Below, piece by piece: positions 1 through 28,320 of a stretch of DNA of 28,320 bases (position 1 is the stretch's first letter; every line of letters starts with the position of its first letter). The position numbers and the translations under genes were made by a program. Source of the stretch: a virus; the IMG/VR virus record IMGVR_UViG_3300030098_004476, positions 4,834 to 33,153 of that record; one strand, 5' to 3'. Under the pieces are notes generated by a model. It had not been told where the DNA came from. It saw only the letters and a list, made by a program, of their open reading frames with translations, and ran no database searches.

Positions 1-2934
1 GCCACCAGTATCTCCAGCGTTAAAGGATTCTAACACTCCATCAATATATAAGAAACTTCCAACACCGTTTCCTCCATACACAAGAGCGACGTTATGCCAT
101 CTTCCATCATCACATAATGTAGTCGAAACCAAATCAGTAGTAACACCATTAGTTCCTATTCTACCTTGAATCTTCCCGTCAGACCTAACTTTTAGATAAG
201 TGTATGGGTCGTGTATTTTTAAGAAATATTGTTCATTTGTATCTTCAGTTCTAACCCAAGCTTCTATAGTTGCAGTAGCGCCAAAAGATTGACCTGATGC
301 GTATAAAATATAATCTGTAGGTGCACTAGTAGGGTCATTATCAAACACTCCCTGAGCAGTACCAATAAGTCCACCAGTCTGACTAATTTGAGTTCCACTA
401 ATGTAAAAGTTTTGTCCAGCTTGGTCGAATACTGAATCACTAGATTTATCATCAGAAATAGCAAAATTATGAACACGGAAATTAATTGAACCACCAGTTG
501 CACCATCAGCGCCTATTTGGAAATCAGTATCTCCTGTAGTTCCTACTATAAAATCAGAACCTAAATTAATACTACCGTCAGTTTTAGCGCGGTATCTATT
601 ATTATACATTTGTTTTCCTAGATAAATAGAAGGTCCCCACCAAGTATCATTGTGTGCAGTTTGGTGTTGATATATTATTTTAGTGTTAGTGTTATGAGTC
701 CAACTATCATTACTTGGTTTAGGAAACTTGTTAACATACAATGCAGCATCTTTTACAATTGCAGCACCAGACATATAGACTGGTATCTTTATATGAACCG
801 AAGCTCCACTAACATCAAGAGTTTGTCTAGTATCATTACCAGCACTATCTCTAAGTGGGAACTTTACTTCAGCTCCACCACCAGTTTTGTCTCCCCACAC
901 AGTGTTGCCATTTATTTTAAATGTAGAAGTGTTTTCGAAAGCGTCATTACCAGTTTTCATACTACCAAACATATGTACACCACTAACTTGTATACTACGG
1001 TAAGGCGCTAGCGTACAACCATAATCAGAATGCGTACCACTCAAAATTGCGGGGTAATTCTCACTGGCAGATTTAATCATTGAACCGTTATTATTATTTG
1101 TCATCGCTTGAATATATGCAGAACCACTAATGTATCCAACTGAACCTGTTGTTCCTAAAGTTAATATACCACCTGAACTTAATCCAGAGTGAGCATAAGC
1201 TCTCATATTTGAAACTAAGTTAATTGAATGTTCTACAATCCAACATCCACCGTGCCAAGCAGGTTTAGTTCCACTAACCTTAACTTTATAGTAAACGTTT
1301 GGTTCTTTAGATGGTAAATTAGCAGGATACCAATTGTTATTATCTGCACTGTTTAAAAGTAAAGTACCACTGTTATGAATGTATGTTCCAGTAACTCTAA
1401 ATCTAGGTTCTCCACCTGTATCACTTAAAGCTCTCAACATCAGTTCACCTCGTGGTGCACTAATTGAAGTACCTGATACAATATCTAATTTATTAGTACC
1501 TCCACCGTTTGGTGTTACAAAATCAAATCGTGGGTTAACCCAAGCTGCGTTTGTAAGTGTACCATTGTTACCACCAATACCACTGTCTACTGCAACTCCA
1601 GTACCTTCATCTAACTTCCACCATCCAACTGGGCTACCAACCCATTGTCCCTGATAAAGAAGTGTTACTTGTGCATCTGTCAGTTGAGTATCATAAACTG
1701 CAATGTTATGCATTCTACCTTGGAATGTATCTGCGCCAGCACCATCTGCTCCAATTTGAAAAGAGGAAGAACTGTAATCAGGACTACCTGTAGGGGTGTT
1801 GGTCGTTTGTAAATCACCGTTAATGTATAACTTTAATGAACCACTCTTATATGACCCAACAATGTGAACCCATTGATTTTTAAAATCAGTGATGTCAAAA
1901 TTTACACTTGAAGTTGCCCTATAAAAATTTAAAGTATTATTATAATGATATAATCTCCAACCTTTAGTGCCACCATCACTATAAGCAGCTAAGTAATCTG
2001 AACCTGAACCACCACTATCAATATAAAACCAACCAGATATTGTAAAATCATTATTTTCTAAATCAGCTTTATCTCCAACATTTATATAATCACCTGTGCC
2101 ATCAAAATTAACATAAGTAGAACTTTTTAGATTCAAAGTACCGCCACTAACGTGTATTGTATTTCCACTGACACTACCTGAACCTACTTGGTAAAGATGG
2201 TATTTAGATTTATCTTGTACAGTGTTAGTTAAAGTTAAGTCACTGTCTGTAGCACTACCATCATCGTTTGTAGCACCGTCATCACAGGTCCACCAGTGAA
2301 TTGGAGTACCGTGTGGTAACTCGCCCTTCATAATTTGACCGAGTTGAGCAGTAGAACTTGATACATTGTAAACCTGAACATCACGTATGTATCCGGGGAA
2401 ATACCTTCCATCTGAAAAAGCAGCCCTTCCTAAATGAGGACGTGCAATAGCATAACTGTGTGTGCCAGCAGATGCATAAGTATCATCTGAATATTGTACA
2501 CCATCAACGTGTAAACTTACATTATTACCGTCAGTCACTATAGCAAAGTGTTGCCAAGTTCCGCTAGTTAATACACCAGCAGAACCGCCTGTGTCTTTTG
2601 CAGCTACACCTCCTCCAGCAGAATCAACATACCCATATCTAAATGAGGTACCGTGACTGCCGTGGTTTCTAGTTTGCATTAAAATCTTTCTAGTTTCAGA
2701 ACTAGAATCAGAAAAAAGTACCTTTTCGCCTTGGTTAGTTTGTGACCCTGTATAGTAAACCCACATAGCTATAGTAGCTGTAGTTCCTGTAACTGTTGAC
2801 ATAGTGGTAGAACCACTAGCGTAAGCGTTAGTGCCATTCAACTGCATAGCAGAAGGCATATTCTGTACTAAAGAACCACTACTTAATGAACCTATGAGGT
2901 TACCACCGTATCCTACAAATTGAATATCTGCCAT
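1..2934 (-). CDS. LamG/concanavalin-like domain virion adhesin, 3' end missing
   Basis: The frame is open from the ATG at 2934 down to base 1 (at least 978 codons, no stop), so the C-terminus lies outside the window. At least three LamG/concanavalin A-like beta-sandwich modules can be seen: residues about 28-205 (with TIAMWVYY, WQHFAIV, LHVDGV), about 272-428 (FTISGWFYID, WVHIVGSY, LKLYINGD) and about 870 to the edge (ATIEAWVRT, WHNVALVYGG, FLYIDGV). A partial copy lies around 780-830 (FQIGADGA also occurs in module two). The stretches between them are rich in G, S, T and N and look like beta-solenoid or fibre material. LamG modules typically bind glycans, so a role in host attachment on the virion surface is inferred. 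The start is one base after the stop of the upstream gene, and GGAGGAAAG in that gene's end is a good ribosome site. LamG call is firm; the adhesin role is likely but unproven. Confidence 0.85.
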   Translation of the reverse strand, partial: MADIQFVGYGGNLIGSLSSGSLVQNMPSAMQLNGTNAYASGSTTMSTVTGTTATIAMWVYYTGSQTNQGEKVLFSDSSSETRKILMQTRNHGSHGTSFRYGYVDSAGGGVAAKDTGGSAGVLTSGTWQHFAIVTDGNNVSLHVDGVQYSDDTYASAGTHSYAIARPHLGRAAFSDGRYFPGYIRDVQVYNVSSSTAQLGQIMKGELPHGTPIHWWTCDDGATNDDGSATDSDLTLTNTVQDKSKYHLYQVGSGSVSGNTIHVSGGTLNLKSSTYVNFDGTGDYINVGDKADLENNDFTISGWFYIDSGGSGSDYLAAYSDGGTKGWRLYHYNNTLNFYRATSSVNFDITDFKNQWVHIVGSYKSGSLKLYINGDLQTTNTPTGSPDYSSSSFQIGADGAGADTFQGRMHNIAVYDTQLTDAQVTLLYQGQWVGSPVGWWKLDEGTGVAVDSGIGGNNGTLTNAAWVNPRFDFVTPNGGGTNKLDIVSGTSISAPRGELMLRALSDTGGEPRFRVTGTYIHNSGTLLLNSADNNNWYPANLPSKEPNVYYKVKVSGTKPAWHGGCWIVEHSINLVSNMRAYAHSGLSSGGILTLGTTGSVGYISGSAYIQAMTNNNNGSMIKSASENYPAILSGTHSDYGCTLAPYRSIQVSGVHMFGSMKTGNDAFENTSTFKINGNTVWGDKTGGGAEVKFPLRDSAGNDTRQTLDVSGASVHIKIPVYMSGAAIVKDAALYVNKFPKPSNDSWTHNTNTKIIYQHQTAHNDTWWGPSIYLGKQMYNNRYRAKTDGSINLGSDFIVGTTGDTDFQIGADGATGGSINFRVHNFAISDDKSSDSVFDQAGQNFYISGTQISQTGGLIGTAQGVFDNDPTSAPTDYILYASGQSFGATATIEAWVRTEDTNEQYFLKIHDPYTYLKVRSDGKIQGRIGTNGVTTDLVSTTLCDDGRWHNVALVYGGNGVGSFLYIDGVLESFNAGDTGG

Positions 2935-2935
2935 A

Positions 2936-5317
2936 CTAACTTATAATCTTTCCTCCTTTATTTATCACATTACCGTATACCTTTACATAACGTTCATCAC
3001 CAGTACTTCTATCTTCAACGTCTAATGTGGCACCTGCACTACCAAGTGTTAAGTTTCCTGATACTACATAACTTATGTTTAAACTACCATCTTGTAAATA
3101 CCAGTTTGTAACCTTTCCACTTTTAATATCGAAATTGCGACCTATATACCATATGTCTGTAGAACCTGCACCCTGTGGTGTCATATAATTGTTAGGAACT
3201 CCGTTAAATGTAAAATCTCTGATAACTGATATATCTCTGTTAGGAGCGCAGTTACCTCCAGATATAATTAAATTGTAAAATGCGTTACCTCCAGTAAAAC
3301 CAGCAGCTGCCTCGTGTTCTATACCTTCACCCCAAGTAACACCAGACACCATCATTGTTCCACTATTATGATGCATCTGCCCACCATCGAACATATAGAA
3401 AGTAGCATTGTTAAACTCATCTCCACCATTGTTTTTAACTACAGAACCACTATAATCTTGAGTACCAGCTTTTTGTGCTAATGATTTAGTGTTCGAAGTG
3501 AGTGGCCAATATAATTTACCACTTGGTCCAATAATCATAGAACCAAATTCAAATTGAGCCCACGCACCATCACGCGTCCAACTACTTGTCGTAGCCTGTG
3601 AAGTTAACATAGTTTGATAGTTAGCTGCACCGTAGTTTCTTAAATCTAACGTACCAGATATAAAAGTTTGAACACCTCGTTCTGCAAAAAATCCACCAGC
3701 GTAAGGTTCAACAGCTGTTGAACCGCCTCTAAGTTCTAGATGTGAACCAGCCGCTATTTTCATCTCATTATGTATATGGAAAGGCCCCCCGGTAAATGTA
3801 CCGTTACTTGTTTGTAATCCGTTACTACCAGAAATGTGAGCATTATACCAATGGAACCTCCTACCATATCCTGTTTGAGCAGCACCACTTGCTGGATTAC
3901 CAGCAATAGTCACATTCTTATAATCATTTTGATTTATTGTTACAATAGAAGCAGAATATCCATTCTGCCACAACAACGTACCACTGCCGTGATAGAACCC
4001 AACAGGTATAGTGTTAAATGTAAAGGTATTACCGTAGTTACCTAAGTATGTACCTATATTTACATACATACTTGAATAACTGTTATACCCTTTAGAGTTA
4101 AATGTAGTTGTTCCACTACTAAACTGAAGGTAAGGGTAACCAGTGCTTCCACTTGCATCGCCATAATTAGCCTTTAATGAACCTATTATAAGATTTGAAT
4201 CTCCACCCCAAATAGATGCACACCCATATAGATATACAGATTGGAAAGAACCTTCATTACTTCCGTCAGTCTTTTTGTCATATATACCAGCATTTCCTTT
4301 AGCTGGATATGCTCCCAAACTAACTGTTCCTCCTTGACAATCTAAAATAGCTCTACTATATCTATAGTAATCTCGGTCAAAATTCATAGCTGAAGGTTGA
4401 TTACCACCTAACCAAGCGTTTTTCATTGAGTTGTCACGAGCGTCCATCCAAGTCATACCACTGACTACAAGGTTTCTATTAGTAGTCTCATATTTTAATA
4501 AGAATCTACCTTTGTATAAATATAAATAATGTTCTATTGTTAAATCACTACGAGGTCTTACTGTATGTTGAGCATAGGTAGGACTAGCTCGAGCATCCCA
4601 AGGTATATCAATTACCAAGTCCCAAGGACCTGAATCTTGAGTTGTATCTGCCCATTGAATATACATATTAGTATCCCAACCAGATACACTATCTCCTTCT
4701 GCATCATCTGGTGCTTTAATATAAAGCATACCTTTATTGTGATAAATTGCACCGTTAGTTAATTCAAAGTAACGGTCCGCAGATGTATTTTGCCCTACAA
4801 AATAACAAGTGCCACTTGTAAAATAAACTTCAGCATTTGCACTAGTTGATGCCATACCTTTTCCAATATACCAAACACCAGTAGAACCTGTTAATATTTT
4901 TCCACTATCTTCTACAACGAACCCATAAGTTGTGGCATTACTTCCAGAAGCAACTTTCAAAGTACTTCCTGATAAATCTAATTGACCTTCGTGTTTAACA
5001 GTTAAATTATTAGTAACAGTTAAATTATAACCAGCTGAATTGAAAGTTCCTTTTTCTAAAATTAAATCATTATCTACTTGTAAAGTGTTTTGTTGTTGAA
5101 CACTCCAGTCACCTTGACTACTACTTACAGTTAAGTTCTGACATTGAATAGCGGCATTGACATAACACTTATCTTTTCCTGTTGGGATGATGACTGTGTC
5201 TACGTGGGTCCCAATACTATCTCCCGGATATCCCGAGCCAAGGTCCCAATTTGCGGGTGCAGTCCAATCTCCGGGACTACCTGCGGTCCTGCTCCACGTA
5301 AATGTTCTAGATGCCAT
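2936..5317 (-). CDS. Large beta-rich virion fibre/receptor-binding candidate (793 aa)
   Basis: A 793-residue protein, rich in G, S, T, N and Y, with no signal peptide or membrane segment. The N-terminus (residues 4-50) has the pattern W....G....W....NW.....P...D.V.IP, common at the start of parallel beta-helix surface proteins. It is followed by NLTV..NLTV steps (residues about 80-120) that look like beta-solenoid rungs. Short GSG/SGT motifs recur about every 25-40 residues. It sits between a small structural gene and the LamG gene on the same strand, with AAGGAGA before its ATG, so it belongs to the virion adhesion cluster. A tail fibre or spike function is inferred. I did not recognise a catalytic site; a polysaccharide-degrading function of the kind known for some beta-helix tail spikes cannot be excluded. 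Confidence 0.7.
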   Translation of the reverse strand: MASRTFTWSRTAGSPGDWTAPANWDLGSGYPGDSIGTHVDTVIIPTGKDKCYVNAAIQCQNLTVSSSQGDWSVQQQNTLQVDNDLILEKGTFNSAGYNLTVTNNLTVKHEGQLDLSGSTLKVASGSNATTYGFVVEDSGKILTGSTGVWYIGKGMASTSANAEVYFTSGTCYFVGQNTSADRYFELTNGAIYHNKGMLYIKAPDDAEGDSVSGWDTNMYIQWADTTQDSGPWDLVIDIPWDARASPTYAQHTVRPRSDLTIEHYLYLYKGRFLLKYETTNRNLVVSGMTWMDARDNSMKNAWLGGNQPSAMNFDRDYYRYSRAILDCQGGTVSLGAYPAKGNAGIYDKKTDGSNEGSFQSVYLYGCASIWGGDSNLIIGSLKANYGDASGSTGYPYLQFSSGTTTFNSKGYNSYSSMYVNIGTYLGNYGNTFTFNTIPVGFYHGSGTLLWQNGYSASIVTINQNDYKNVTIAGNPASGAAQTGYGRRFHWYNAHISGSNGLQTSNGTFTGGPFHIHNEMKIAAGSHLELRGGSTAVEPYAGGFFAERGVQTFISGTLDLRNYGAANYQTMLTSQATTSSWTRDGAWAQFEFGSMIIGPSGKLYWPLTSNTKSLAQKAGTQDYSGSVVKNNGGDEFNNATFYMFDGGQMHHNSGTMMVSGVTWGEGIEHEAAAGFTGGNAFYNLIISGGNCAPNRDISVIRDFTFNGVPNNYMTPQGAGSTDIWYIGRNFDIKSGKVTNWYLQDGSLNISYVVSGNLTLGSAGATLDVEDRSTGDERYVKVYGNVINKGGKIIS

Positions 5318-5827: not shown

Positions 5828-8800
5828 TTAATCTTTGACAACCCAAACACCGGGAGCAACTATTACAAAAGTCTTATTTGCTCCCCTATAAGCAGCTATT
5901 GATACAGTAGCGGAAGCACTATTACTACCTCCTTCATAAATAACATCGGAACTACCAGCTTGTTTCTGAACAGTCAGTGCTCCTTCTGGGTCTGCGTCCC
6001 ATCTTTGCATAACTGTTATCTCTAACCCTGTATACTTAGATTCAGCAAGAGGTAATTCAGTTGGGATAGCTCCTGCACCCGGTGGACTTGTTGCTTCTGC
6101 TTTTACATACTGGGTGTTAGGTTGATGTTGTAAAATTGCATTTGAGTCAAAACCAGCGTGTATTGCACGTAAATATACAGACTCTCCTATATCTTTTTGA
6201 ATTGCACCTCCAGATACGTGCAAACTAGATGAAGGTGCATCTGTACCTATACCTAGTCCTGTGTCATCAATTCTCATTATATCTGCGTTTTGTATAGTAA
6301 ACCTTATTGGAACTACTGCTGAACCAGTAGATTGAAGTTTTAATGTACTTCCTCTGTGTTCCATTAAGTAATATCCGTTATGACCACTTCTATTATTTTG
6401 TAATTTAATAGATGGGTCTACATCTCCACCTAACACGTGAAGTAAATCATCAGGTGCTGTTGTGCCTATACCAAAATTGCCGTTAGTTAACATAGACATT
6501 TTAGTACTAGTTCCAGCTGATTTAAACCTTATATCACCATCGGCTTCATACTCTATAGCAGCGGTACTTCCACTTCTTATATGGAAAACGGGGTTGCCTG
6601 TATCATTATAAATTGCATATTCTTTATCATAATGGGTTGTTAAATTATTTCCAGAATCAAGACTTAAATCTTTACCAGCAGTTCTAATATACAATTCATT
6701 AGGTCCTTCAATTACTGCACCTTTACTGTAATTATTACCTGTTGTTTTAAATCTAAGATATTCACTACTTGCTCTACTTCCACTCATATAAGTAGTTGCA
6801 CCATCTGTAGTAGAACCTGTTGCGTGTCTAAATGCAATATAACGACTTTTGTTAGTCCATATATCTGTGTATGCATCATCAGTAGTACCTAAAGCTTGTC
6901 CAGCATTACCAGCTAGAACTGCTGCATAAGTATCCTCTACACCTATTCTTTTTATATCAGTAAATGCAACACCTGTAGTGTCTTGGAATCTAGATACAAT
7001 GTTTGTACCACTAACGTGAAATGCTGTGGCAGGACTGGATGTTCCTACACCTAATTTTCGACCAAGTGTTCTAAGATATAGATTTTTACTGTCATCACCG
7101 AAATGCATATTGTATGAATATATTATGTGGTCCGTCTGGAAATCTAAAGTAGAATCAGAAGCTTCTAAACGTAATACATATCCGTTATTAGATGTGTTTT
7201 TAAATCTACCTACAAAACTACTAACATCATCATATACATCTAATTTGTAACTAGGGTTAGTTGTGCCTATACCTATATGTTTATCTGCACTATCTAAATG
7301 CAATACAGATGTACCGTCTTGAGCAGCAAGTACTAAATCATAACCAGAAGCTTTAGGTTGTAACGTTACTGGAGAACTAGCCCCTGCTGCAATTCTAAAG
7401 GTTTCAGTTCCTCTATAATTAAAATTAGTTATTCCTGCTTCAGAATTAAGGTTTACATTATCTGCTGCATATAATTGTAAGTGTCCACTAGAACCAGATA
7501 TAAGATTAGCATTTATGTTTATGTTAGATGCGACAGTTAATGTGTCAGTTCCTTTAACATATGTTAATCCTGCATCACCACCAAACGAAGAGCCACCGTC
7601 GTTAAACTGGACTTGAGTATCAGAACCGGCAGCACTACCGCCTCCTCCAGCGGCAGAACCGTTGTTAGTTAGTGCAATGTCGTTACCGTCATCGTCTGTA
7701 TAATATAAATTAGCAGGGTCATCATTTTTAACCCAGAGTTTTCCAAAAGCAGCTGTATGATTAGGTGCTGATGCTCGTTCTTTGATTTCTATTGCAGGGT
7801 CAGAACCGTGTAATCCTACAAGACCATCATCGTGAACTGTAAATAACCAATTCTGGGAACTGTCAACTACTTTAAACAAATAAGTACCTGCAGCACCTCC
7901 TAAATCAGCTTGTACATCTCCTTTACTATCTAACCTGATTCTTTCGCCACCGGTATCTGTTTCTAAAGCTAACTGACCGTGATGGGATTTTATTACAGTG
8001 TCGCCACCACTATTCATACCGAAAGTAGTGTAGTGACTTCCATCCCAAGCTAAAGTCAAAGGTACTCCGTTATCGGCATCTACAACTGTAACTTTACCAG
8101 TAGCAATGTGACTGGTATTACCTACAAGTAAACCTCCCTTACCTGCTGTTCCATAGTTACTATCTGTAGAAAAGACTACACTTGGTATACTACCCGAAAT
8201 TGTTGGGTCAAGGCTTGCAGATGTTTCTGAAGCAAACCCAAGTCCCATATCTCCAGCACCACTTCTGCGCCAAGCATTACTAACTAACCATCTTCTAGCA
8301 TTACTAGACCAATTACTATTACCGTGGAAAAGTAAAGAACCAAAGTTACCATAATCTTGTCCACCAGAATTATAACCTGCTGTACCAGCTAATACTAAAG
8401 ATACAGCTCTACCACCACCCATTGCGTTTTGATGTAAACTAGTTTGCTCAGCTGCTCCTATAACCATATAAGGTGGTTCTGCACGACCACCACCCATTTG
8501 TGAATGTTTACCTCCAATACCAGCTAAAACATAAGAACCTGAACCTAAAGATGGTGCATACAATGATGTTACCCTTGTGTGTGTAGAACTAGTATATGCA
8601 GTAGAAGTAATACCTGTACCAGAAATAGTTAAACCTTGTCCTTGTCTTAAAGTGTCTGGTGCAATAACTCCTATACCAACTCCTTGAGTAGAGTTCATAG
8701 TCATACCAGAAACGCCAGCAGTCAATAAGTGTAAAGTGTCAGCTGCACTTCTAGACATACCTGTATTTTGGTCACCATAAAATCCATAATTAGCTTCTCC

Positions 8801-11800
8801 ACCAGTTGGAGTTAAATCTAATAAAGGTCCACCACTTGTTGCTGAATAAAGTTTACTTGCATCTAAGTGCATACGTGGATTACTTGAAATGTAAAAATCC
8901 ATTCTATTACTATATCTATACAAACCTAATGTTGAATCTGCACCAAGGAATAACTTACTATAACTACCATCGTTAGCCATACGCACTGTTTCATAACCAC
9001 CAACAGTGAAACGCATTGTTTCTAAAGCGTGATTATAACCTATGTGCCCAATAGCGTTACTTGACGTGTCACCAAATAATAATCTACCTTCGTGAGTATC
9101 ATCACTTACATCAATGAGTATACCTTTATCATTAGCAGATGTTAGAACGTGTAATGGTTGTTGAGGTGTAGTTGTGCCTATACCTACTTTACCATCAGGT
9201 TGTATTGTAAAGATTGCATTAGCGTCATCTGCCGTTGATTCTAAGGAACTTCCTGTATCACTTAAACTACTTTTATATGCTACCCCCCATTTGAAAGAAG
9301 TACCATAAAGAGGACCACTATACCATCCTGCTGTATTAGGATGATTATATGAATAAACACCACCGGGTCTATTAGCTCCATTATATGTTAATAGTTTAAT
9401 ACCAGCTGCGGTATATCCTGCACCTGAACCCATAATTTTCAGATAAGTGTTTTGATTTGCATCTGTTGCTCCAATGTTAACTGCATTACTAAAAGTACTA
9501 GTTCCTCCTCCTTGTAACTCTACACCTGTTCCAAGATTTAAATTACTACTTCCAGTAATATTTCCTACAACGTGAAGTTTTTCACTGGGTGCATCAGTGC
9601 CTACACCAACTCCACCATTAGATTGTTTTAACACTAATTGATTACTGTTTCCATTTGTAGTCATAACTAGGTTAGAAGTTGCGTTTTGTGTTATATTGAA
9701 AATACCAGTGTCATTTCGTAAAGTGGAATTACCATCGTGATATAAGTAAAAATCATCACTATCACCAGCTGCAAGTGTATGACTATCTTGTACTCTTAAA
9801 TTACCATTTATATCTACAATAGTCCCATTGTAAGTAAAGTTAGCATTACCTTCAATAGTGTTAGCACCTGTCCATATAGCTAGTTGATTATCTACCGGTG
9901 TTCCCGATTTAGAAACGTCACCGCCTCCGGCTGCTGCAACAGCAGTAGTTACATAAGCAGTAGAAGCTGCTTTAGTACTGTTATCACTTGAAGTCATTGT
10001 TCCAACAACCGGAGTAGTGTTGAAAGTAGCAAGACCTGCTTCTGACATATCAAAAGATAATGCAGTTACTTGACCTGTATCATTATCAACACCTGTAATG
10101 TTTAGGTCTTTATCTGTGCCTTTAGCTTGTAACCAGACATTATCATTAGTATCCATATAAACAGTAAACTTGTTACCACCAGCTTTACTAAATTTAACAT
10201 CTCCACCAGCAGCATCAAGTGTAATGTCATCAGCGACATCTAAAAGAAAATCTCCACTAGACACATCATATTCATTGTCTGATATAGTAGTGTAAGAACT
10301 TGAACCAATTTTTGCACTTCCTCGAACATCTAATTTAGCAGTAGGTCCACTTGTACCTATGCCTACGTCACCACCAGCTTCTAAAAATAATACATTATCT
10401 GCTACACCCACTTCTGCAAAATTAAGACCATTCTGGGTAGAATCCAAACCTAAGTTCCAATCCGACCTTCCTGAATCTATATCTTCCAATCTAAGTCGAG
10501 GTGTATTTCCTTTAATTTGTATTTCTGGGGCAGACCCTGATACTACTAATGAATATCCGGGTGAAGCTGTACCTATACCTACATTAGAACCAGAGGTTAC
10601 AATAAAACTAGGAACTCCTTCATCTCCATATGCTTTAACCATAAACGGGTGTCTATCAGCATTACCACTAACACCTAATACATATCCACCAGAACCGCTA
10701 TTTTCGTCATCACCAGAACTATATCCAAATTGCCCATATCTGAAAAAAGAATAAGACCAACGTCTGTTTGATTGTCCCAAATTAGCACTAGAATCAGAAG
10801 TAGGAATGAATGAAGTATATACTTGTGTAGAACCTAAGAAAAGACTTCCACCAACACCACCAATCTTACCAAACCCTGTACCGTCATTATTAGTGTCTCC
10901 AAAATAAATACCTTTAGAACCATTGTTAAACATATACATTCCATAAGTATTACTTCCTTGCATAACGTGTAAAGGATAACTCGGATTAGTTGAACCTATA
11001 CCTACATTACCACCATTTTTAAAGGTAACCATCTGAGCTCCTCCACCCTGATAATCGTATACTGCTAAATCTCCATTTGTTTCATAAAGAGCCCATAAAT
11101 TAGTTCCAGCAGTATTTTGATAATAAAATGCTCCTCCAGTCCTTCTCAAATAATAATCTTGGGTAGTATGAATAGCTCCGGAAACATCTAACGTTTTAAC
11201 AGGGCTATCTGTACCTATACCTACCCTATTGTTTGCGGTAAGGCGCATAGTTTCTGAACCACTAGTGTAAAACGATGTTATACCGTGGTCGTAAGTAGTT
11301 GCATTTTTTTGTGTCTGTCCTACTTTGAATTCAGACAAACCTACATTTGGAGTAGCATTTTTAAGATATTCTAAAGAAACTGCATAATTCCAATTGTGTG
11401 AATATCCTAATGTTAATTTAGGATTACCACTATTACCCATCACCCAAAGATTACCTTGACCGTAACCTAATAATTGAACGTTGTTACCGTCTAATAAAAT
11501 ACCATCATCGAACCGAGCTGCATATCCATTACTTCCTGAGATAACGTGTAAAAGTGCACTAGGGTTATTCGTATTTATACCTACGTTACCACCAGCAAGA
11601 ATACGCATTCTTTCAGTGCCATTGGTTGCAATTTTAAGAGGTACATCTGCTGCATATGACCATATATAAGATTCATTAGTGTTATTATTATATCCAACAT
11701 CTAATCGTCTACTATCACTTTCATCGAAAACAGCTAAACCATTTGCAGTAGAAGCAGCATTAGTGTTTCTTAACATCAAACCAGCATCGCCTGCAACACT

Positions 11801-12172
11801 AGTAAGTACATTTAAAGATTCGTTAGTGCTATTAAAAGTGATTACACTAGTACCTGATATAGTAGATGCTACACCAGCAGTTTTATAGAAAGGTAATTGT
11901 CCTTGTGAAGAAGATGCAACTATACCGCTACCACCACCACCACCACCACCGGCAGAATTAATAGTGTAAACGCCTGATGATTCACTAACTGTTACATTTG
12001 TTCCCGCAGAGATACCCACCACAGGTAGGGTTACAGTTCTTTGTGGTACATTGTTAGTTTGATTTAATTGTAAAATATTATCACTTAACGCCAAACTTGA
12101 TACGTTTGACCCTGAAACATTTTTTAAAATGCTCTTCTTTCCGTGTGGTAATATTCTTTTCGATAGTGGCAT
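5828..12172 (-). CDS. Giant repetitive tail-fibre protein with GIGT..P...L.V repeats (2114 aa)
   Basis: A 2114-residue protein, the longest in the window. From about residue 195 to 1986 it carries twelve copies of a motif of the form (V/I/L)G(I/V)GT..P...L.V, such as VGIGTDSPVKTLDV, VGIGTTTPQQPLHV and LGIGTDAPSSSLHV. The copies alternate with variable beta-rich segments with recurring Y, W, G and DGD-type turns. Such repeats are typical of long fibres of marine phages. Glycine-rich linkers occur near residue 77 and about 1515. The last 100 residues lack the repeat and may be a tip or attachment domain. No S74 chaperone motif was seen. The gene follows a terminator and has its own possible promoter. 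The fibre role rests on repeat type and genomic position; the receptor is unknown. Confidence 0.85.
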   Translation of the reverse strand: MPLSKRILPHGKKSILKNVSGSNVSSLALSDNILQLNQTNNVPQRTVTLPVVGISAGTNVTVSESSGVYTINSAGGGGGGGSGIVASSSQGQLPFYKTAGVASTISGTSVITFNSTNESLNVLTSVAGDAGLMLRNTNAASTANGLAVFDESDSRRLDVGYNNNTNESYIWSYAADVPLKIATNGTERMRILAGGNVGINTNNPSALLHVISGSNGYAARFDDGILLDGNNVQLLGYGQGNLWVMGNSGNPKLTLGYSHNWNYAVSLEYLKNATPNVGLSEFKVGQTQKNATTYDHGITSFYTSGSETMRLTANNRVGIGTDSPVKTLDVSGAIHTTQDYYLRRTGGAFYYQNTAGTNLWALYETNGDLAVYDYQGGGAQMVTFKNGGNVGIGSTNPSYPLHVMQGSNTYGMYMFNNGSKGIYFGDTNNDGTGFGKIGGVGGSLFLGSTQVYTSFIPTSDSSANLGQSNRRWSYSFFRYGQFGYSSGDDENSGSGGYVLGVSGNADRHPFMVKAYGDEGVPSFIVTSGSNVGIGTASPGYSLVVSGSAPEIQIKGNTPRLRLEDIDSGRSDWNLGLDSTQNGLNFAEVGVADNVLFLEAGGDVGIGTSGPTAKLDVRGSAKIGSSSYTTISDNEYDVSSGDFLLDVADDITLDAAGGDVKFSKAGGNKFTVYMDTNDNVWLQAKGTDKDLNITGVDNDTGQVTALSFDMSEAGLATFNTTPVVGTMTSSDNSTKAASTAYVTTAVAAAGGGDVSKSGTPVDNQLAIWTGANTIEGNANFTYNGTIVDINGNLRVQDSHTLAAGDSDDFYLYHDGNSTLRNDTGIFNITQNATSNLVMTTNGNSNQLVLKQSNGGVGVGTDAPSEKLHVVGNITGSSNLNLGTGVELQGGGTSTFSNAVNIGATDANQNTYLKIMGSGAGYTAAGIKLLTYNGANRPGGVYSYNHPNTAGWYSGPLYGTSFKWGVAYKSSLSDTGSSLESTADDANAIFTIQPDGKVGIGTTTPQQPLHVLTSANDKGILIDVSDDTHEGRLLFGDTSSNAIGHIGYNHALETMRFTVGGYETVRMANDGSYSKLFLGADSTLGLYRYSNRMDFYISSNPRMHLDASKLYSATSGGPLLDLTPTGGEANYGFYGDQNTGMSRSAADTLHLLTAGVSGMTMNSTQGVGIGVIAPDTLRQGQGLTISGTGITSTAYTSSTHTRVTSLYAPSLGSGSYVLAGIGGKHSQMGGGRAEPPYMVIGAAEQTSLHQNAMGGGRAVSLVLAGTAGYNSGGQDYGNFGSLLFHGNSNWSSNARRWLVSNAWRRSGAGDMGLGFASETSASLDPTISGSIPSVVFSTDSNYGTAGKGGLLVGNTSHIATGKVTVVDADNGVPLTLAWDGSHYTTFGMNSGGDTVIKSHHGQLALETDTGGERIRLDSKGDVQADLGGAAGTYLFKVVDSSQNWLFTVHDDGLVGLHGSDPAIEIKERASAPNHTAAFGKLWVKNDDPANLYYTDDDGNDIALTNNGSAAGGGGSAAGSDTQVQFNDGGSSFGGDAGLTYVKGTDTLTVASNININANLISGSSGHLQLYAADNVNLNSEAGITNFNYRGTETFRIAAGASSPVTLQPKASGYDLVLAAQDGTSVLHLDSADKHIGIGTTNPSYKLDVYDDVSSFVGRFKNTSNNGYVLRLEASDSTLDFQTDHIIYSYNMHFGDDSKNLYLRTLGRKLGVGTSSPATAFHVSGTNIVSRFQDTTGVAFTDIKRIGVEDTYAAVLAGNAGQALGTTDDAYTDIWTNKSRYIAFRHATGSTTDGATTYMSGSRASSEYLRFKTTGNNYSKGAVIEGPNELYIRTAGKDLSLDSGNNLTTHYDKEYAIYNDTGNPVFHIRSGSTAAIEYEADGDIRFKSAGTSTKMSMLTNGNFGIGTTAPDDLLHVLGGDVDPSIKLQNNRSGHNGYYLMEHRGSTLKLQSTGSAVVPIRFTIQNADIMRIDDTGLGIGTDAPSSSLHVSGGAIQKDIGESVYLRAIHAGFDSNAILQHQPNTQYVKAEATSPPGAGAIPTELPLAESKYTGLEITVMQRWDADPEGALTVQKQAGSSDVIYEGGSNSASATVSIAAYRGANKTFVIVAPGVWVVKD

Positions 12173-13354: not shown

Positions 13355-13370
13355 AATAATCACTTATTCC

Positions 13371-13769
13371 TTATAGAATCACCTTCTTTAAAGATAATCC
13401 GTCACCGGTTGCTAAAGCTGAAGTTTCTGCGTAGATTCCTACTACTGAACCTTGACCTTTTACAACTGGGGTAGCTGTTTCTAAGTACATTCCTGCACCT
13501 TGAACTGCTATTTCTGCTCCGGGGTTAATGTTTCCTGAACAAAATGTTCTTAACAATACTCCCTTCCCTGTTACTACATTTACAACGTTACCGGATGTTG
13601 CTGCGGTTAATGATACTCCAATACCTTTGGCTCCACTCACTTTTACTGGTTGGATTTGTCCATTGGTGTGTTGAACTACATAATCACCTGCTGCAATAGT
13701 CTCGTTTGCTGTAAATGGTAAGATGCGGCTTGGTGCCCCACCATCGTTTACAATTATTTCTGTTGCCAT
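13371..13769 (-). CDS. Capsid decoration/stabilising protein (DUF2190-like)
   Basis: A 132-residue all-beta protein. It opens with a region like those in DUF2190-type decoration proteins (FTANETIAAGDYVVQ) and continues with VKVSGAKGIGVSLT and GKGVLLRTFCSGNINPGAEI, the G-x-G-V pattern of a small beta-barrel. Proteins of this type bind the outside of HK97-fold capsids and stiffen them. The gene lies between protease and capsid genes, the usual place for a gpD-like protein. The start has the strong archaeal site AGGTGATT five bases before ATG. The assignment is by resemblance and position. Confidence 0.7.
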   Translation of the reverse strand: MATEIIVNDGGAPSRILPFTANETIAAGDYVVQHTNGQIQPVKVSGAKGIGVSLTAATSGNVVNVVTGKGVLLRTFCSGNINPGAEIAVQGAGMYLETATPVVKGQGSVVGIYAETSALATGDGLSLKKVIL

Positions 13770-16317: not shown

Positions 16318-16344
16318 TGGTATCAAATAATAAATAGACGGGTC

Positions 16345-16362: not shown

Positions 16363-18042
16363 TCATAAACCGCGTATATATCGCTTTCCAGAGCTAGAAT
16401 TGCGTCTTCCAGAGGTTGTTAATGTACTCCTACTGTGTCTTCCGCGTCTTGTTTTAGACTTCTTTTTAACGGTCACTGTACTAAGGCTTGCACTAGCAGG
16501 TAACATTGAAAGTGCAGAGTGTACACCAATCACACTACTGTCACAATAATCGTCGTGTTTTCCGTTTGGAGCAGCTATCTTTTCTGTTTTTTGAGTAGAA
16601 TCCATAACATATTCAATATCACAGTGTTCTCTATACCATTTCCACATTAATTTTTTGGCTTCACCTTCTTGGTAATCGGGTCTAGGAACCCTAATAGCAG
16701 TTTTTTGCACAAATGATACATAATCACGATAAGCATAAGTTTTTGACCCCCTTGGTCCCCCAGTAAATACGAAAGGTATGAAATGTATACTTCTTGGAAT
16801 ACATTCTAACCTTATATCCTGTTCGACCGCACCCCCAATACCTGTCGCGTCGATAATAACACGAGCAGCAGAAAAGGTATCAGCCACAGACATAATTCGT
16901 TCTCTTTGATAAGGAATATCGTGTCCTCCAGACTTTGGTCCGATTTCTTCCAAATAGATAAGTCGTGCGATATTGCCATCATCCAACTTTTCAGTACTCC
17001 ATACACTAATAACAGTAGAATTGACAGATTTGCCAATGTCAACAGCCACAGTATTGTTTTTTCCTGTTTGGACAATGGAATCGACCGTTTGTTGTGTAAT
17101 GAGTTCATAGTCGTCAAAACATCTCCTTATATTTTCTGGTATAAATACATTTGATATACTTTCCACGAATTCACATTCATATTCAGTTTTCCAGTGTATA
17201 GAGTCTTCACCCCATTCAGTCATTTTATTCAACATCTCCTCCTCTTCATAAGGAGCAGTATAAGCTTCACCCTTAACAATTGCATTTCGCCAAGTATAAT
17301 GTAATCGACTGAACGTATCTTCGTACCCTTCGTCATACAAATATCGGTACATATGATTATCTTTACTCTTGGGTGTACCAAGGTTGATAAACGGCGCCTT
17401 ATTCGCTACAATGGCAGGTTCAACGTTGTCGATAAACAACTCGTCTGCTATTAAAGGTGACTCATCCACTATTAAAAGTGTTGGGTGCTGTCCCCGAATA
17501 GATTGTCCTTGGTTAGAAGGCGCTACGGGTGCCCTACGCAGGATTGTACCAGCTTTCATCTTGATATGAGGCTTGTTATGTAGCTTATAATTACCGACTA
17601 GACTATCTAAAAATGCATTATCCCTAAAATGACGCAGTACATAATCAAAAATCAGGGCGCACTGGTCTTCTGTAGGTGCTAAAACAAACACAAGGTCCCT
17701 AAATCGGTTAAAAAACATAAAAATAACAGCTGCAACAGACAATGCCCAAGATTTTCCACTACCTCTAGGTGCTAAAATCGCTAATTTTCGGTGTTTATCC
17801 GGATTTCCTTCAGGATATGTCAAAGATTTGACTACAATGTCCATTTGTAGTGGTCTTAATCGTAAAGGTCTCTGTTGTTTGTCTAATAAATAGGTTTGAC
17901 AGAAGGCTCTTACTAGTTTTTCCATCTTTTTTTCATCTTTACGGACTTCTCCAAAAAAAGTAGATAGGTTTTGCGAGTCAAATTTGTTAGGTCCACTTAA
18001 AGCGGCCTTAATCTCTTTCGTCTGGTTCGCTACTGGTATCAT
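16363..18042 (-). CDS. terL: Terminase large subunit (559 aa)
   Basis: An ATPase-nuclease that packages viral DNA. Walker A is APRGSGKS (residues 91-98), Walker B is LLIVDE (189-194) with the catalytic Glu, and the coupling motif region is around INLGTPKSK (219-227). The RNase H-like nuclease has acidic residues at D335 (AVDIGKS), D398 (IIDATGIGG) and D497/D498 (KHDDYCDS). The last 35 residues are very basic, which may help DNA or portal binding. The length is normal for the family. The gene starts 34 bases inside the end of the small upstream gene, with GGAAG before the ATG, so the two are translationally coupled. It precedes the portal gene, as usual. All key residues are present. Confidence 0.95.
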   Translation of the reverse strand: MIPVANQTKEIKAALSGPNKFDSQNLSTFFGEVRKDEKKMEKLVRAFCQTYLLDKQQRPLRLRPLQMDIVVKSLTYPEGNPDKHRKLAILAPRGSGKSWALSVAAVIFMFFNRFRDLVFVLAPTEDQCALIFDYVLRHFRDNAFLDSLVGNYKLHNKPHIKMKAGTILRRAPVAPSNQGQSIRGQHPTLLIVDESPLIADELFIDNVEPAIVANKAPFINLGTPKSKDNHMYRYLYDEGYEDTFSRLHYTWRNAIVKGEAYTAPYEEEEMLNKMTEWGEDSIHWKTEYECEFVESISNVFIPENIRRCFDDYELITQQTVDSIVQTGKNNTVAVDIGKSVNSTVISVWSTEKLDDGNIARLIYLEEIGPKSGGHDIPYQRERIMSVADTFSAARVIIDATGIGGAVEQDIRLECIPRSIHFIPFVFTGGPRGSKTYAYRDYVSFVQKTAIRVPRPDYQEGEAKKLMWKWYREHCDIEYVMDSTQKTEKIAAPNGKHDDYCDSSVIGVHSALSMLPASASLSTVTVKKKSKTRRGRHSRSTLTTSGRRNSSSGKRYIRGL

Positions 18043-18343: not shown

Positions 18344-18625
18344 TCACCACTTCACTCTGTTAGCCCAATATGCGGCTGATAGTTTTCCTTTCTTTATATT
18401 CTTAGCGTGACGTGCCTTAAATGACTTTCTTCGAGCTTTAGATTTTTTGTCAGTTTTTTTACCTGCTCCAGATACACCTTGTTGACCAAATCGTATTGTT
18501 TTAACTGTATCACCTTCTTTTGCCACAACTACGTGTGACTTAGTAGGGTGACTTGGTGTTCTTTTAGGTTTATTGTATCCAGACACTCCTGCTCTAGCTA
18601 ATCTTGAATCTTTTTTCTTTGCCAT
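18344..18625 (-). CDS. Basic 93-aa protein of a marine-phage family (DUF6321-like)
   Basis: Ninety-three residues, very basic. The central and final parts, VKTIRFGQQGVSGAGK, KARRKSFKARHAKNI and GKLSAAYWANRVKW, closely match a small conserved family that I recall from cyanophages, pelagiphages and other marine phages (DUF6321-like). The function is not established; the basic charge suggests DNA binding. It lies just before the terminase genes, so a packaging or head role is possible. The ATG overlaps the stop of the tiny gene upstream (TAATG), with GAGGAAAAAGTA as the ribosome site. Its presence in an apparently archaeal virus suggests exchange with bacteriophages. Confidence 0.8.
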   Translation of the reverse strand: MAKKKDSRLARAGVSGYNKPKRTPSHPTKSHVVVAKEGDTVKTIRFGQQGVSGAGKKTDKKSKARRKSFKARHAKNIKKGKLSAAYWANRVKW

Positions 18626-21034: not shown

Positions 21035-21967
21035 ATGAAAGAAACTCAAAGTGACTCTTCGGAGTTCACGTTTACTGTCAGTGTTGACACTGAAACCGAA
21101 ACTGAAGATATAGATTGGACTCCAAGCGAACAACGTTTGTCTCCGTCTAAGATAAATACTTTTTTGCACTGCCCGAGGCAGTTCTACTACAAATACATTG
21201 AAAAGTTACCAGACCAACTTACCTTGCACCTTTTTCGAGGTACTATAGTTCACGAAATACTTGAAGATTTATTTGAAAAAGAATTTAAGTATCCTAGTCG
21301 ATGGCGAAACGGCGAACCGCAAGAGTGGGCAATTTTAGAGTTCCGTAAAAAATGGGCAGAACGTAAAGCTAAAATGCCGTGGTTATGGAAGAACCCCGCC
21401 ATTGATGGTGACGTTATGGAAAGGGAAACCATTGACCTTCTTGTAAATTACTGCCACCGTGTAGAAAAGAAACTGTATGAATTAATGGATTGGAAGGTTG
21501 CGCGTTCCAAAGATATGGCGTTTAAACAACTTAAACCAACATTCGCCGAGATGCGAGTGCATAACAAAGAATACAAAATAATGGGTATTATCGATGTTAT
21601 CCAAAAAGATTTCGAGGGTAATATCTCTATAGTTGATTATAAAACCAGTAAGCGATACGGAAGCTGGTTGCCCGATGATTACTATCGTCAATTAATAATA
21701 TATGCCCTATTGTACAAAGAAGAAACTGGGGTCACCCCAAAATTCGCGGGTATCGATTGGTTGCGGTATGACGACTGTTATTTTGTCGCAGTTAACGACG
21801 GTATTATCGAAGAAGCGCGGGAACTAGTCAAAGGCATACACAACGAATTAAAGAAAAGGGGGGACGACATTGAGCAGTATCCATTAGTGCCCCAGAACCT
21901 TTGTAAGTGGTGTGCCTTCTATAAGAAGCCCTGCGAACCAAAAGGTATATATAGTAAGAAAAAGTGA
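21035..21967 (+). CDS. PD-(D/E)XK nuclease of the Cas4/AddB/RecB type with Fe-S cysteines (310 aa)
   Basis: The PD-(D/E)XK core is clear: SPSKINTFLHCPRQFYYKY (residues 36-54), RGTIVHEILE (68-77, His73), GIIDVI (Asp187), IVDYKTS (Asp201, Lys203) and YRQLIIYALLY (Gln219). One Cys at 46 and three at 290, 293 and 300 (CKWC.....PC) form the four-Cys pattern that holds a 4Fe-4S cluster in Cas4 and AddB. Such enzymes resect or trim DNA ends, so a role in viral recombination, replication or end processing is likely. No CRISPR genes or arrays are nearby, so this is not part of a CRISPR system here. The N-terminal 33 residues are acidic and Thr-rich, without a known domain. First rightward gene, leaderless promoter. 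Confidence 0.9.
   Translation: MKETQSDSSEFTFTVSVDTETETEDIDWTPSEQRLSPSKINTFLHCPRQFYYKYIEKLPDQLTLHLFRGTIVHEILEDLFEKEFKYPSRWRNGEPQEWAILEFRKKWAERKAKMPWLWKNPAIDGDVMERETIDLLVNYCHRVEKKLYELMDWKVARSKDMAFKQLKPTFAEMRVHNKEYKIMGIIDVIQKDFEGNISIVDYKTSKRYGSWLPDDYYRQLIIYALLYKEETGVTPKFAGIDWLRYDDCYFVAVNDGIIEEARELVKGIHNELKKRGDDIEQYPLVPQNLCKWCAFYKKPCEPKGIYSKKK
21946..21954 (+). promoter_or_regulatory. TATA promoter for the 142-aa membrane protein
   Basis: TATATATAG inside the last codons of the nuclease gene, centred near 21950. It predicts a start near 21975, 38 bases before the ATG at 22013. Confidence 0.5.
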
Positions 21968-25307: not shown

Positions 25308-25383
25308 AACCCCGACCATAGAGCATAGTCTATTGAGCAACAGCAACAACAGCAAGACTCAGTAGATAGGAGCAAAGCAAACA

Positions 25384-26360: not shown

Positions 26361-26457
26361 GTAATGAACGCCGATAGGAATGAAGTGGTCGACAAAGCGG
26401 GTTTTGTTTTCCCCGTGCTCCTACGTCCGCTTTATTCCCGGCAATGTTCGATGAGAA

Positions 26458-26482
26458 TACGCTGGTGTGAGTCTTTATATAT
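26458..26482 (+). promoter_or_regulatory. Strong rightward promoter, copy 2 of a duplicated element
   Basis: Matches 25283-25307 with one mismatch, including TACGCT, GTGTGAG and CTTTATATAT. The predicted start is near 26505, just before AGAGGAAATGTA and the ATG at 26528. AAAGCGG at 26394 and CCGCTTT at 26427 form an inverted repeat upstream. Confidence 0.7.
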
Positions 26483-26527
26483 GACCAAAACTATAAAGCA
26501 ACACTGCGAGAGCAAAGAGGAAATGTA

Positions 26528-28252
26528 ATGACAATAGAAACAGCAGAGTGTGATGTATGTGGCGCTGAAGAGCAGTCAACCGACATCGAATCTACAGCAG
26601 CTTATGAGTGTGTTTGCTCAAGTTGTCGTGATGAGATGTGGTCTTGTGATGACTGCTCAGATGAGTTCACAGCATCAGATGAACAATACGATACGCCGAA
26701 TGGCACTATATGTCACGACTGCCGTCACGGTGACGATTATTGTGACTGTGACAATTGCGGCGAGATTATCGCACTACAAAATGGTGACTATTACAACGAC
26801 CAAGAATACAGCGGTGAGATTGTTTGTTACAATTGCGGCGATACATCTTGCACTGATTGCCGTGAGTGTGGCACTGACATAGAGTTCTACGAAGTGGGCA
26901 GCGACCACTATTATGACCGACGCTGTGAAGAATGTTACAACAGAAATGACCGAAGTATTGGCTCTGCCACTAACTCAATGTCACGCAGCGTGACTAATAT
27001 ACTTACAGCAAATTCATACTCACCATTATCGGGTCACGATTATATGTTGCTTTCTCGATATTACAATCACGCTTTAGACGATTACGAGCATAACAGGTAT
27101 GTTATAAACAAAAATGCACTCGGTCCTCGCTTCAATACTGATGAGGGCGAAGCTTGGTGGAATGGTCAAATCAAGCTGACTAGTCCTGTCTACAAACGCA
27201 CAGCAGCAATGTTGTCAGATATGATGAAATTAGATTTATTCTTAGACCAGCATAAAAAGTATGGTCTATATCACCCATTACGGCACATCTTTAGAACTTG
27301 TCTAAAATATTATCACCGAAGCAATGGTGAATATGTAGATGGTTGTGAAGTTAGTATGGAAACGCTTGGTCAACACTACTTTGACTATCCTTTAGAGCAA
27401 ACTAATAGAGAAAAAATTATTAGAATGCTGAAAGATAACAAGACTGATGACGGAGCAGACCTTAAGAGAGCACTCAATCAAGTCTTTTCGAGAGCATATC
27501 GACTTAAATTCCCACAATATACATCACGGACAAATGGCCGCACTGAGTGGGCAGATTATTTCCAACAATATCAAACTAATGTAGTAAGCAAGTTAGTCGA
27601 TGTCCAAATCGGCTTCGATGTATCAACATTATGGGAAAATTTCCAAGCAGGTGAAGCACTGCGTAGTTGTCAGACGCCGGGTAACAGCACTGCATATGGT
27701 TTCGGTGCTGCCGATATGATGACTAACCCACATCTGCTTGCTATACTGCGTGACGAACACGGCACTCTTATTGGCCGTTCAGTTATTAGACTATTCAAAG
27801 AGCAGTGGGATGACGAGCATCCTATGATGATTGCTCCATCCAGAATATACTTATCACAGCACTCAAATGTAAAGAATGAAGTGTATGTTGGACTATTCCA
27901 AGCACTAAATGAGTGGGCAACCTCAACATTTACTGAAGGCTTCCACTTAATTGCTTACCGTCATTCAAGACACGACAGCAGTATATTTAGTTTTATTAGA
28001 TACTCAGAAAAATTCAGCAGAGATACTACTATATCACGACCAAGACTTTACACGCTGGATTGGGTTCCATTTTGGGAAACCAAACCTGACAACAGTGAAG
28101 CGACATTTACTTATTATCAAGACGAGGACCAACGACTCAAGCTCAGCAGTGTGCGTAGAGACGCAGAGGCTCCTCCATTCGTTCAATACTCAGCACGTGA
28201 GTATATAAGCGGAGAAGAATATTATATAATCGAGGTAGAAAACAATGACTAA
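26528..28252 (+). CDS. Large protein with a Cys-rich zinc-binding N-terminus (574 aa)
   Basis: Residues 1-140 hold 19 Cys, mostly as CxxC knuckles (Cys8/11, 30/33, 40/43, 62/65, 74/77, 100/103, 108/111, 133/136). They look like several tandem LIM-like or treble-clef zinc fingers. The middle (about 150-365) is helical. Residues 369-425 contain LWENFQAGEALRSCQTPG with Cys381, then NPHLLAILRDEHGTLIGRSVIRLF. This last pattern recalls proteins of large phages with a (S/T)CM...NP..v.L......i..R motif whose function I do not know; Cys381 might be catalytic. The stop of an upstream frame overlaps the ATG (TAATG), but the twin promoter 46 bases upstream is the more likely driver. The ribosome site is AGAGGA. 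Confidence 0.65.
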   Translation: MTIETAECDVCGAEEQSTDIESTAAYECVCSSCRDEMWSCDDCSDEFTASDEQYDTPNGTICHDCRHGDDYCDCDNCGEIIALQNGDYYNDQEYSGEIVCYNCGDTSCTDCRECGTDIEFYEVGSDHYYDRRCEECYNRNDRSIGSATNSMSRSVTNILTANSYSPLSGHDYMLLSRYYNHALDDYEHNRYVINKNALGPRFNTDEGEAWWNGQIKLTSPVYKRTAAMLSDMMKLDLFLDQHKKYGLYHPLRHIFRTCLKYYHRSNGEYVDGCEVSMETLGQHYFDYPLEQTNREKIIRMLKDNKTDDGADLKRALNQVFSRAYRLKFPQYTSRTNGRTEWADYFQQYQTNVVSKLVDVQIGFDVSTLWENFQAGEALRSCQTPGNSTAYGFGAADMMTNPHLLAILRDEHGTLIGRSVIRLFKEQWDDEHPMMIAPSRIYLSQHSNVKNEVYVGLFQALNEWATSTFTEGFHLIAYRHSRHDSSIFSFIRYSEKFSRDTTISRPRLYTLDWVPFWETKPDNSEATFTYYQDEDQRLKLSSVRRDAEAPPFVQYSAREYISGEEYYIIEVENND

Positions 28253-28320
28253 GAAAGAAAGCAATGAAACAGTTGCAGAAAAGCAACAGGCTAGTAAGTC
28301 AGTTGTTACCAAGATTCCTG
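28245..28320 (+). CDS. Start of a further rightward gene, cut by the window edge
   Basis: The ATG at 28245 lies eight bases inside the previous gene and opens MTKKESNETVAEKQQASKS and beyond, 25 codons before the edge. GAGGTAG precedes it. A polar, Lys/Glu/Ser-rich start; family unknown. Confidence 0.55.
   Translation, partial: MTKKESNETVAEKQQASKSVVTKIP

What the first reader, a model, noticed from the sequence alone, without database searches (positions are those of the whole stretch)
1..28320. No GATC and no CATG in 28 kb
Reading every line by eye, including across block borders, I found no GATC and no CATG on this strand; both are palindromes, so none exists on the other strand either. With about 37-38% G+C each should occur roughly 90-100 times. 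Other four-base palindromes (GTAC, CTAG, AGCT, ACGT, TTAA, GGCC) are present. Two complete absences together point to selection by host restriction enzymes that cut GATC and CATG, and hence give a fingerprint for finding the host.
Basis: partly seen in the sequence, partly recalled or inferred. Interest (0 to 1): 0.75.

Follow-up and report, generated by a model that had tools for sequence, protein, structure and literature searches.

The report
Marine archaeal viruses purged three restriction sites
This window comes from a tailed virus of uncultured ocean archaea whose DNA has lost every copy of three short words (GATC, CATG and CCAGG/CCTGG) that host DNA-cutting enzymes typically recognise; the same gaps run through a whole family of related viruses and help point to the host.

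Summary
In detail: GATC 0 and CATG 0 in 28,320 b, against 73 and 113 in dinucleotide shuffles. These are the only 4- and 5-base words purged in the close relatives. Protein sequence does not explain it: codon shuffles expect 61, 60 and 16.

Homologues of its terminase and polymerase form a large virus family in IMG/VR. In 111 non-redundant contigs (1.71 Mb), GATC is 42 against 5,264 expected; 42 contigs (578 kb) lack all three sites. Lineages switch independently: some keep CATG at exact expectation, some keep CCWGG, one partly tolerates GATC, and a few also lose CTAG or GTAC.

The host is an archaeon: relatives carry archaeal initiation factor aIF1A and tRNAs. The best candidates are marine Poseidoniia, perhaps Marine Group III (MGIII). 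MGIII genomes carry BglII/BstYI-family and DpnI-family GATC nucleases and a Dam-family methylase. An EcoRII-like (CCWGG-type) pair occurs in another Poseidoniia genome. I identified no CATG enzyme.

Most likely this is purging under host restriction, as known for haloviruses. It is a new, unusually complete member of a known kind.

The parts
1..28320 (.). Whole window: no GATC, no CATG, no CCWGG on either strand
   Evidence: also absent from the remaining 4,833 b of the record
2936..5317 (-). 793-aa protein, part of the tail/fibre block (function inferred from position only)
   Evidence: ORF list; no PHROG match
5828..12172 (-). 2,114-aa repetitive protein with 'GIGTxxP' repeats, probable tail fibre (inferred from sequence and position)
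   Evidence: ORF list; direct repeats D1
12269..13363 (-). Major head protein (HK97-type by inference from the PHROG names)
   Evidence: phrog_1650 E 1.8e-10 and others
13371..13769 (-). Head scaffolding/decoration-like protein
   Evidence: phrog_673 E 2.6e-8
13781..15034 (-). 417-aa protein, probable prohead protease/scaffold (inferred from position)
   Evidence: weak phrog_19364
15031..16326 (-). Portal protein
   Evidence: phrog_9232 E 3.7e-16
16363..18042 (-). Terminase large subunit, used to find relatives and to build the family tree
   Evidence: phrog_2 E 7.6e-32; 70 then 80 related loci; tree
18344..18625 (-). Conserved 93-aa virus protein
   Evidence: phrog_7595 E 4.7e-39
21035..21967 (+). 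Cas4/RecB-like exonuclease
   Evidence: phrog_69 E 5e-27, phrog_1706
26528..28252 (+). 574-aa cysteine-rich protein; its family occurs in the CATG-avoiding genomes and not in the CATG-tolerant ones
   Evidence: family G001_020; no Pfam match

Best explanation
The window is part of a tailed virus of an uncultured marine archaeon, most likely of the class Poseidoniia (MGIII or MGII). Its ancestors were repeatedly exposed to host type II restriction enzymes that cut GATC, CATG and CCWGG. Any genome with an unprotected site was cut on entry, so every site was removed, almost always by synonymous changes. The virus protects itself by having no sites, not by methylating them. Related lineages that met other sets of enzymes show other sets of purged words. 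Shown here: complete absence of the three sites, its spread and switching in the family, synonymous mode, archaeal genes in the viruses, and GATC-type restriction genes in MGIII genomes. Inferred: that those particular enzymes are the selecting agents, that MGIII or MGII is the host, and that a CATG enzyme exists.
For: Absence far beyond chance for three palindromic type II sites and for no other 4- or 5-mer in the pooled relatives (683/875/230 expected, 0 found). Codon shuffles exclude a protein cause. Near-complete relatives of 65-76 kb have 0/0/0 with about 200/250/70 expected. In 111 non-redundant contigs GATC is 42 against 5,264. Clade-specific switching: G014 has CATG 186 against 185.9 expected while GATC and CCWGG are 0; other clades keep CCWGG, or lose CTAG or GTAC as well. 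Relatives encode archaeal aIF1A (1JT8 E 3.6e-24, PF01176), and four records carry tRNAs with a D-arm shared mostly with MGII/MGIII. MGIII genomes carry a DpnI-family nuclease (PF06044 E 3.9e-28), BglII/BstYI-family nucleases (PF09195 E 2.2e-11 and 7.2e-11) beside an m5C MTase, and a Dam-family MTase. Another Poseidoniia genome has an EcoRII-C nuclease beside an m5C MTase; two have a Dam-family MTase plus a PADLOC type II REase. Published precedent: PMC8651126, PMC7230728.
Against: No CATG-specific enzyme was identified in Poseidoniia. GATC MTase/REase genes were found in only a minority of the 340 Poseidoniia genomes searched (D12 family in 22). No virus of this family was found inside any of those genomes (terminase 0 of 340). 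The aIF1A tree does not decide between MGII and MGIII (AU p = 0.37 for virus+MGIII). BglII and BstYI themselves recognise six-base sites containing GATC, so a GATC-cutting specificity for the MGIII enzymes is inferred. No activity was measured.
Confidence: 0.82

Rival explanations
1. The CATG gap is self-protection against a nuclease that the virus itself encodes: a small PD-(D/E)XK protein (PDDEXK_14) cuts host or competitor DNA at CATG, and the viral genome stays safe because it has no such site.
For: The PDDEXK_14 gene is present in every long record of the CATG-avoiding lineage that covers its locus (G001, G003, G005, G006, G012) and absent from all CATG-tolerant ones. It sits just after the polymerase and matches PF24579, E 1.6e-12.
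Against: On the polymerase set this is a single evolutionary split, so the correlation is weak. The structure model is poor (pLDDT 58), and its nearest folds include Holliday-junction resolvases and a DpnI chain, none at E <= 0.001. It does not explain the GATC and CCWGG gaps. The virus family already has a separate RecU-like resolvase.
Confidence: 0.07
2. The gaps come from mutation or repair at methylated sites (for example host methylation followed by deamination, or a repair system that cuts at GATC), not from restriction.
For: GATC and CCWGG are the classic Dam and Dcm sites, and one virus lineage carries an m5C MTase.
Against: Mutation bias gives depletion, not zero across hundreds of kilobases. 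CATG is also absent, and in sister viruses it is exactly neutral. Host chromosomes of MGIII and MGII keep GATC at about half of expectation and CATG at 0.74-0.92.
Confidence: 0.04
3. The gap is a by-product of composition, codon use, assembly or library preparation.
For: None found.
Against: Markov, dinucleotide-shuffle and synonymous-codon controls all predict dozens of sites. The gap recurs in contigs from many different metagenomes, while CATG is normal in other contigs of the same family.
Confidence: 0.01

Closest known systems
HF1-group haloviruses (HF1, HF2, Serpecor1, Hardycor2; PMC7230728)
   Same: Lytic archaeal tailed viruses whose whole genomes lack given 4-base palindromes (GATC and CTAG), attributed to host restriction; most also carry a methylase for some other motif.
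   Different: Hypersaline hosts and another motif set. Here GATC, CATG and CCWGG are purged together, CTAG is only mildly reduced in most lineages, and the virus family is uncultured and marine.
Archaeal tailed viruses that lack Dam and lack GATC (PMC8651126)
   Same: The published rule 'methylate yourself or purge the motif' describes the pattern; no Dam-type D12 MTase was found in 12 records of this family.
   Different: Here the rule appears in a marine family with at least three motifs and repeated switching between clades; methylases are present but of other classes.
Viruses of Poseidoniales: Magrovirales and Adrikavirales (PMC12451623, PMC13108676)
   Same: Tailed dsDNA viruses predicted for marine Poseidoniia archaea, with genomes of a similar order of size.
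   Different: The one exemplar I looked up (PP497040) was not in the collections, so kinship could not be tested; restriction-site content is not discussed in the magrovirus paper checked.
Bacterial phages that lost host restriction sites (for example Staphylococcus phage K without GATC; from memory)
   Same: Complete loss of a host restriction site in a large lytic genome.
   Different: Single isolates with one site; here a deep family with three sites and clade-wise changes.

Membership tests
Restriction-site purging as a virus counter-defence | A specific type II recognition word is absent far below expectation while similar words are not | tested here: met
   GATC, CATG, CCWGG 0; all other 4-mer palindromes and CCSGG present
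Restriction-site purging as a virus counter-defence | Avoidance by synonymous change, not by protein composition | tested here: met
   Synonymous shuffles expect 61/60/16, observed 0/0/0
Restriction-site purging as a virus counter-defence | Shared by relatives with the same host defence and relaxed in others | tested here: inconclusive
   Clade-specific states on the family tree are clear; that they track host defences is inferred, since the hosts are unknown
Restriction-site purging as a virus counter-defence | Virus does not encode a methylase that protects the same site | tested here: inconclusive
   No D12/Dam MTase in 12 records; a beta-class MTase and, in G012, an m5C MTase of unknown targets are present
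Restriction-site purging as a virus counter-defence | Host carries the cognate restriction enzymes | tested here: inconclusive
   GATC-type genes in MGIII, EcoRII-like pair in one Poseidoniia genome; no CATG enzyme identified; exact host unknown
Restriction-site purging as a virus counter-defence | DNA that carries the sites is restricted by the host | not testable with these tools
   Needs purified enzymes or a cultured host
Tailed dsDNA viruses (Caudoviricetes) of archaea | Head/packaging module: major head protein, portal, terminase | tested here: met
   PHROG matches
Tailed dsDNA viruses (Caudoviricetes) of archaea | Archaeal host | tested here: met
   Indirect: aIF1A and archaeal-type tRNAs in relatives, aIF1A also in the 98%-terminase relative G001; not inside the window itself
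Virus of Marine Group III archaea | Virus genes or sequences linked specifically to MGIII | tested here: inconclusive
   aIF1A 48-52% identical to MGIII and 37-42% to MGII, tRNA nearest to MGIII, but tree unresolved and no integrated copy
Magrovirales or Adrikavirales | Phylogenetic grouping of capsid and terminase with the type species | not testable with these tools
   Exemplar PP497040 not held; phage collection gives only distant terminase matches (25% to Halogranum tailed virus 1)

The most novel reading that the evidence does not exclude
Some MGIII archaea carry two opposite GATC nucleases side by side: a DpnI-type enzyme, whose known relatives cut adenine-methylated GATC, and a BglII/BstYI-type enzyme expected to cut unprotected (R)GATC(Y), paired with a C5-cytosine methylase. 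Adenine methylation would then be no escape, which would explain why an entire virus family has purged GATC instead of methylating it, and why the only lineage that tolerates some GATC (G012) encodes a C5-cytosine methylase.
Probability: 0.2. Interest if true: 0.7.

Novelty: new member of a known kind. Interest (0 to 1): 0.55.

Why it matters
Almost nothing is known about how uncultured marine euryarchaea defend themselves. A family-wide record of purged sites reads out which restriction specificities have pressed on these viruses, clade by clade. It gives a testable list of enzymes (GATC, CATG, CCWGG, and CTAG or GTAC in some clades) to look for in Poseidoniia, a host-assignment mark for viral contigs, and a way to spot chimeric assemblies.

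Tried and rejected
Scan of GTDB genome contigs with the terminase profile: nothing confirmed. Terminase profile in 340 Poseidoniia genomes: nothing, without a positive control. DNA search of 20 kb of virus against the same genomes for spacers: only gene-level similarities, no spacer-like match, but it exposed the aIF1A homologue. Virus-encoded Dam as the cause: not found. Longer purged motifs: among 6-mers only some words, mostly palindromes, are low (for example CTCGAG and AGGCCT in the CATG-tolerant set; CCTAGG and GGGCCC in the other), none as clean as the three sites. Flanks of residual GATC and CCWGG sites show no obvious longer motif. PDDEXK_14 fold: model too poor to name a function. 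PDDEXK_14 relatives in other virus contigs or phages: none beyond this family. PP497040 not available. Magrovirus paper: no mention of restriction or GATC.

Full report
1. Observation. The window holds no GATC and no CATG. Expected numbers are 71-74 and 91-113, depending on the background model. A systematic word count shows a third gap, CCWGG (0; 27-32 expected), while the sister word CCSGG is not depleted. The window is bases 4,834-33,153 of a 33,153-b virus record, and the rest of the record is also free of all three. Shuffling synonymous codons within the same proteins would leave about 61 GATC, 60 CATG and 16 CCWGG, so selection acts on the DNA word and not on the protein.

2. What the window is. 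It is a tailed dsDNA virus: major head protein, scaffold-like protein, portal and terminase on the minus strand, a Cas4/RecB-like exonuclease on the plus strand, and long tail/fibre genes. No close relative was found in the phage collection; the best terminase match is 25% identity to Halogranum tailed virus 1, a virus of an archaeon. IMG/VR holds hundreds of relatives; the most similar long record is 71.9 kb (G001, terminase 98%).

3. The gap is family-wide. Records of 64.7, 71.9 and 75.5 kb have 0/0/0 where roughly 200 GATC, 220-280 CATG and 70 CCWGG are expected. Pooling close relatives, of all 4-mers only GATC and CATG, and of all 5-mers only CCWGG, are purged. In 111 non-redundant contigs (1.71 Mb), GATC is 42 against 5,264; 42 contigs totalling 578 kb lack all three.

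4. The gap changes between clades. On a terminase tree of 97 rows, GATC is near zero everywhere except one clade at about 12% of expectation. CATG is absent in most rows but normal in basal clades, and CCWGG needs at least four changes. G014 has CATG at exactly the neutral number (186 against 185.9) with zero GATC and CCWGG. Among 53 polymerase loci, GATC is zero in all but one; a few additionally lack CTAG (L321 3/71, L329 1/62) or GTAC (L350 0/34). This is what exposure to different sets of restriction enzymes would leave.

5. Virus-side genes. A beta-class N6/N4 MTase (PF01555) stands in a slot upstream of the RecU-like resolvase in G001, G003, G005, G006 and G008; in G012 the slot holds a C5-cytosine MTase. 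The long CATG-tolerant genomes have neither. The targets are unknown; homologues of the beta-class enzyme are common in marine cyanophages. A small PD-(D/E)XK protein (PDDEXK_14) follows the polymerase only in CATG-avoiding genomes. This allows a rival in which the virus avoids its own nuclease, but it rests on one evolutionary split.

6. Host. The related genomes encode aIF1A, an archaeal translation initiation factor (1JT8 E 3.6e-24; PF01176), and four records have tRNAs with an archaeal D-arm whose exact matches fall mainly in MGII and MGIII genomes. aIF1A is 48-52% identical to MGIII and 37-42% to MGII, but a rooted tree leaves the choice open. G+C of virus and MGIII is alike at about 37%. 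I conclude: archaeal host about 0.95, Poseidoniia about 0.75, MGIII about 0.5 (my estimates).

7. Host enzymes. MGIII genome G027 (named 'marine group III euryarchaeote AH-321-L02') has, side by side, a DpnI-family nuclease (PF06044 E 3.9e-28), a BglII/BstYI-family nuclease (PF09195 E 2.2e-11) and an m5C MTase (L474). G047, placed in MGIII by its aIF1A, has a homologous m5C MTase (76%), a BglII-family nuclease, a DUF262-type (GmrSD-like, by my reading of the sequence) 1,133-aa protein and a Dam-family MTase on one contig (L473). Two other Poseidoniia genomes have a Dam-family MTase next to a PADLOC type II REase, and one has an EcoRII-C nuclease beside an m5C MTase. So GATC-type and CCWGG-type restriction genes exist in the candidate host class. 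Their known relatives read: BglII AGATCT, BstYI RGATCY, DpnI methylated GATC, EcoRII CCWGG (established knowledge; not tested here). No CATG enzyme was identified, and these genes are in a minority of sampled genomes.

8. Mechanism. The most likely reading is purging of restriction sites under host type II restriction. Where a DpnI-type and a BglII-type enzyme coexist, adenine methylation would not help, which fits purging rather than methylation. This last step is inference.

9. Comparison. Haloviruses of the HF1 group lack GATC and CTAG completely (PMC7230728), and archaeal tailed viruses without Dam lack GATC (PMC8651126). The present case works the same way and is a new member of that kind. 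It is larger in extent (three sites, a deep family, clade-wise switching) and lies in uncultured marine archaeal viruses. It is not a new kind of system.

10. Caveats. Environmental contigs can be chimeric: G004 lacks CATG for 19 kb and then has it at normal density. Counts per contig are not independent. Host assignment is indirect. No enzyme activity was tested.

Noticed in passing
L074:8672-9001:+ (G001) and homologues in G003, G005, G006, G012, G014, G015, G016: The virus family encodes an archaeal translation initiation factor 1A (aIF1A); one literature search of the held library turned up no report of one in a virus. It could bias host translation toward viral mRNAs.
   Followed up: partly
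L474:1997-4416 (G027) and L473:2272-8429 (G047): MGIII restriction islands: a DpnI-like nuclease beside a BglII/BstYI-like nuclease and an m5C MTase; in the other genome an m5C MTase, a BglII-like nuclease, a DUF262-type protein and a Dam-family MTase.
   Followed up: partly
G004 (L085-L087, L091; L353), about 18.7-19.3 kb: Sharp step: no CATG in the first 19.3 kb, then normal density. The left part matches CATG-free relatives and the right part CATG-tolerant ones: a recent recombinant or an assembly chimera.
   Followed up: partly
L321, L329, L350: Some sister viruses additionally lack CTAG (3/71, 1/62) or GTAC (0/34, 6/47), suggesting further host specificities.
   Followed up: no
L132:4573-5682:+ (G012): The long record of the only lineage that tolerates some GATC (15/136) carries a C5-cytosine MTase in the slot where relatives carry a beta-class MTase.
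   Followed up: partly
G027:C10:1-6000 (L475): A 6-kb segment at the end of an MGIII contig, with a resolvase-like gene, a DUF6998/methyl-directed REase-like gene and a 666-aa m5C MTase, has CATG 0/21 while the rest of the contig is normal: mobile DNA in MGIII may also avoid CATG.
   Followed up: partly
window 25283-25325 and 26458-26500: Direct repeat with TTTATATA just upstream of two plus-strand genes (starts 25384 and 26528); looks like archaeal TATA-box promoters.
   Followed up: no
L077:2465-2542, L083:9415-9492, L088:18822-18899, L132:1830-1907: Virus tRNA genes (tRNA-Lys CTT, tRNA-Glu CTC) with encoded CCA and an archaeal D-arm close to MGIII/MGII tRNA-Glu.
   Followed up: partly
MGII and MGIII contigs L148-L230: Host side: MGII-like contigs have AGCT at 0.35 and GATC at 0.50 of expectation; MGIII-like contigs have GATC at 0.53 and CATG at 0.74.
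   Followed up: no
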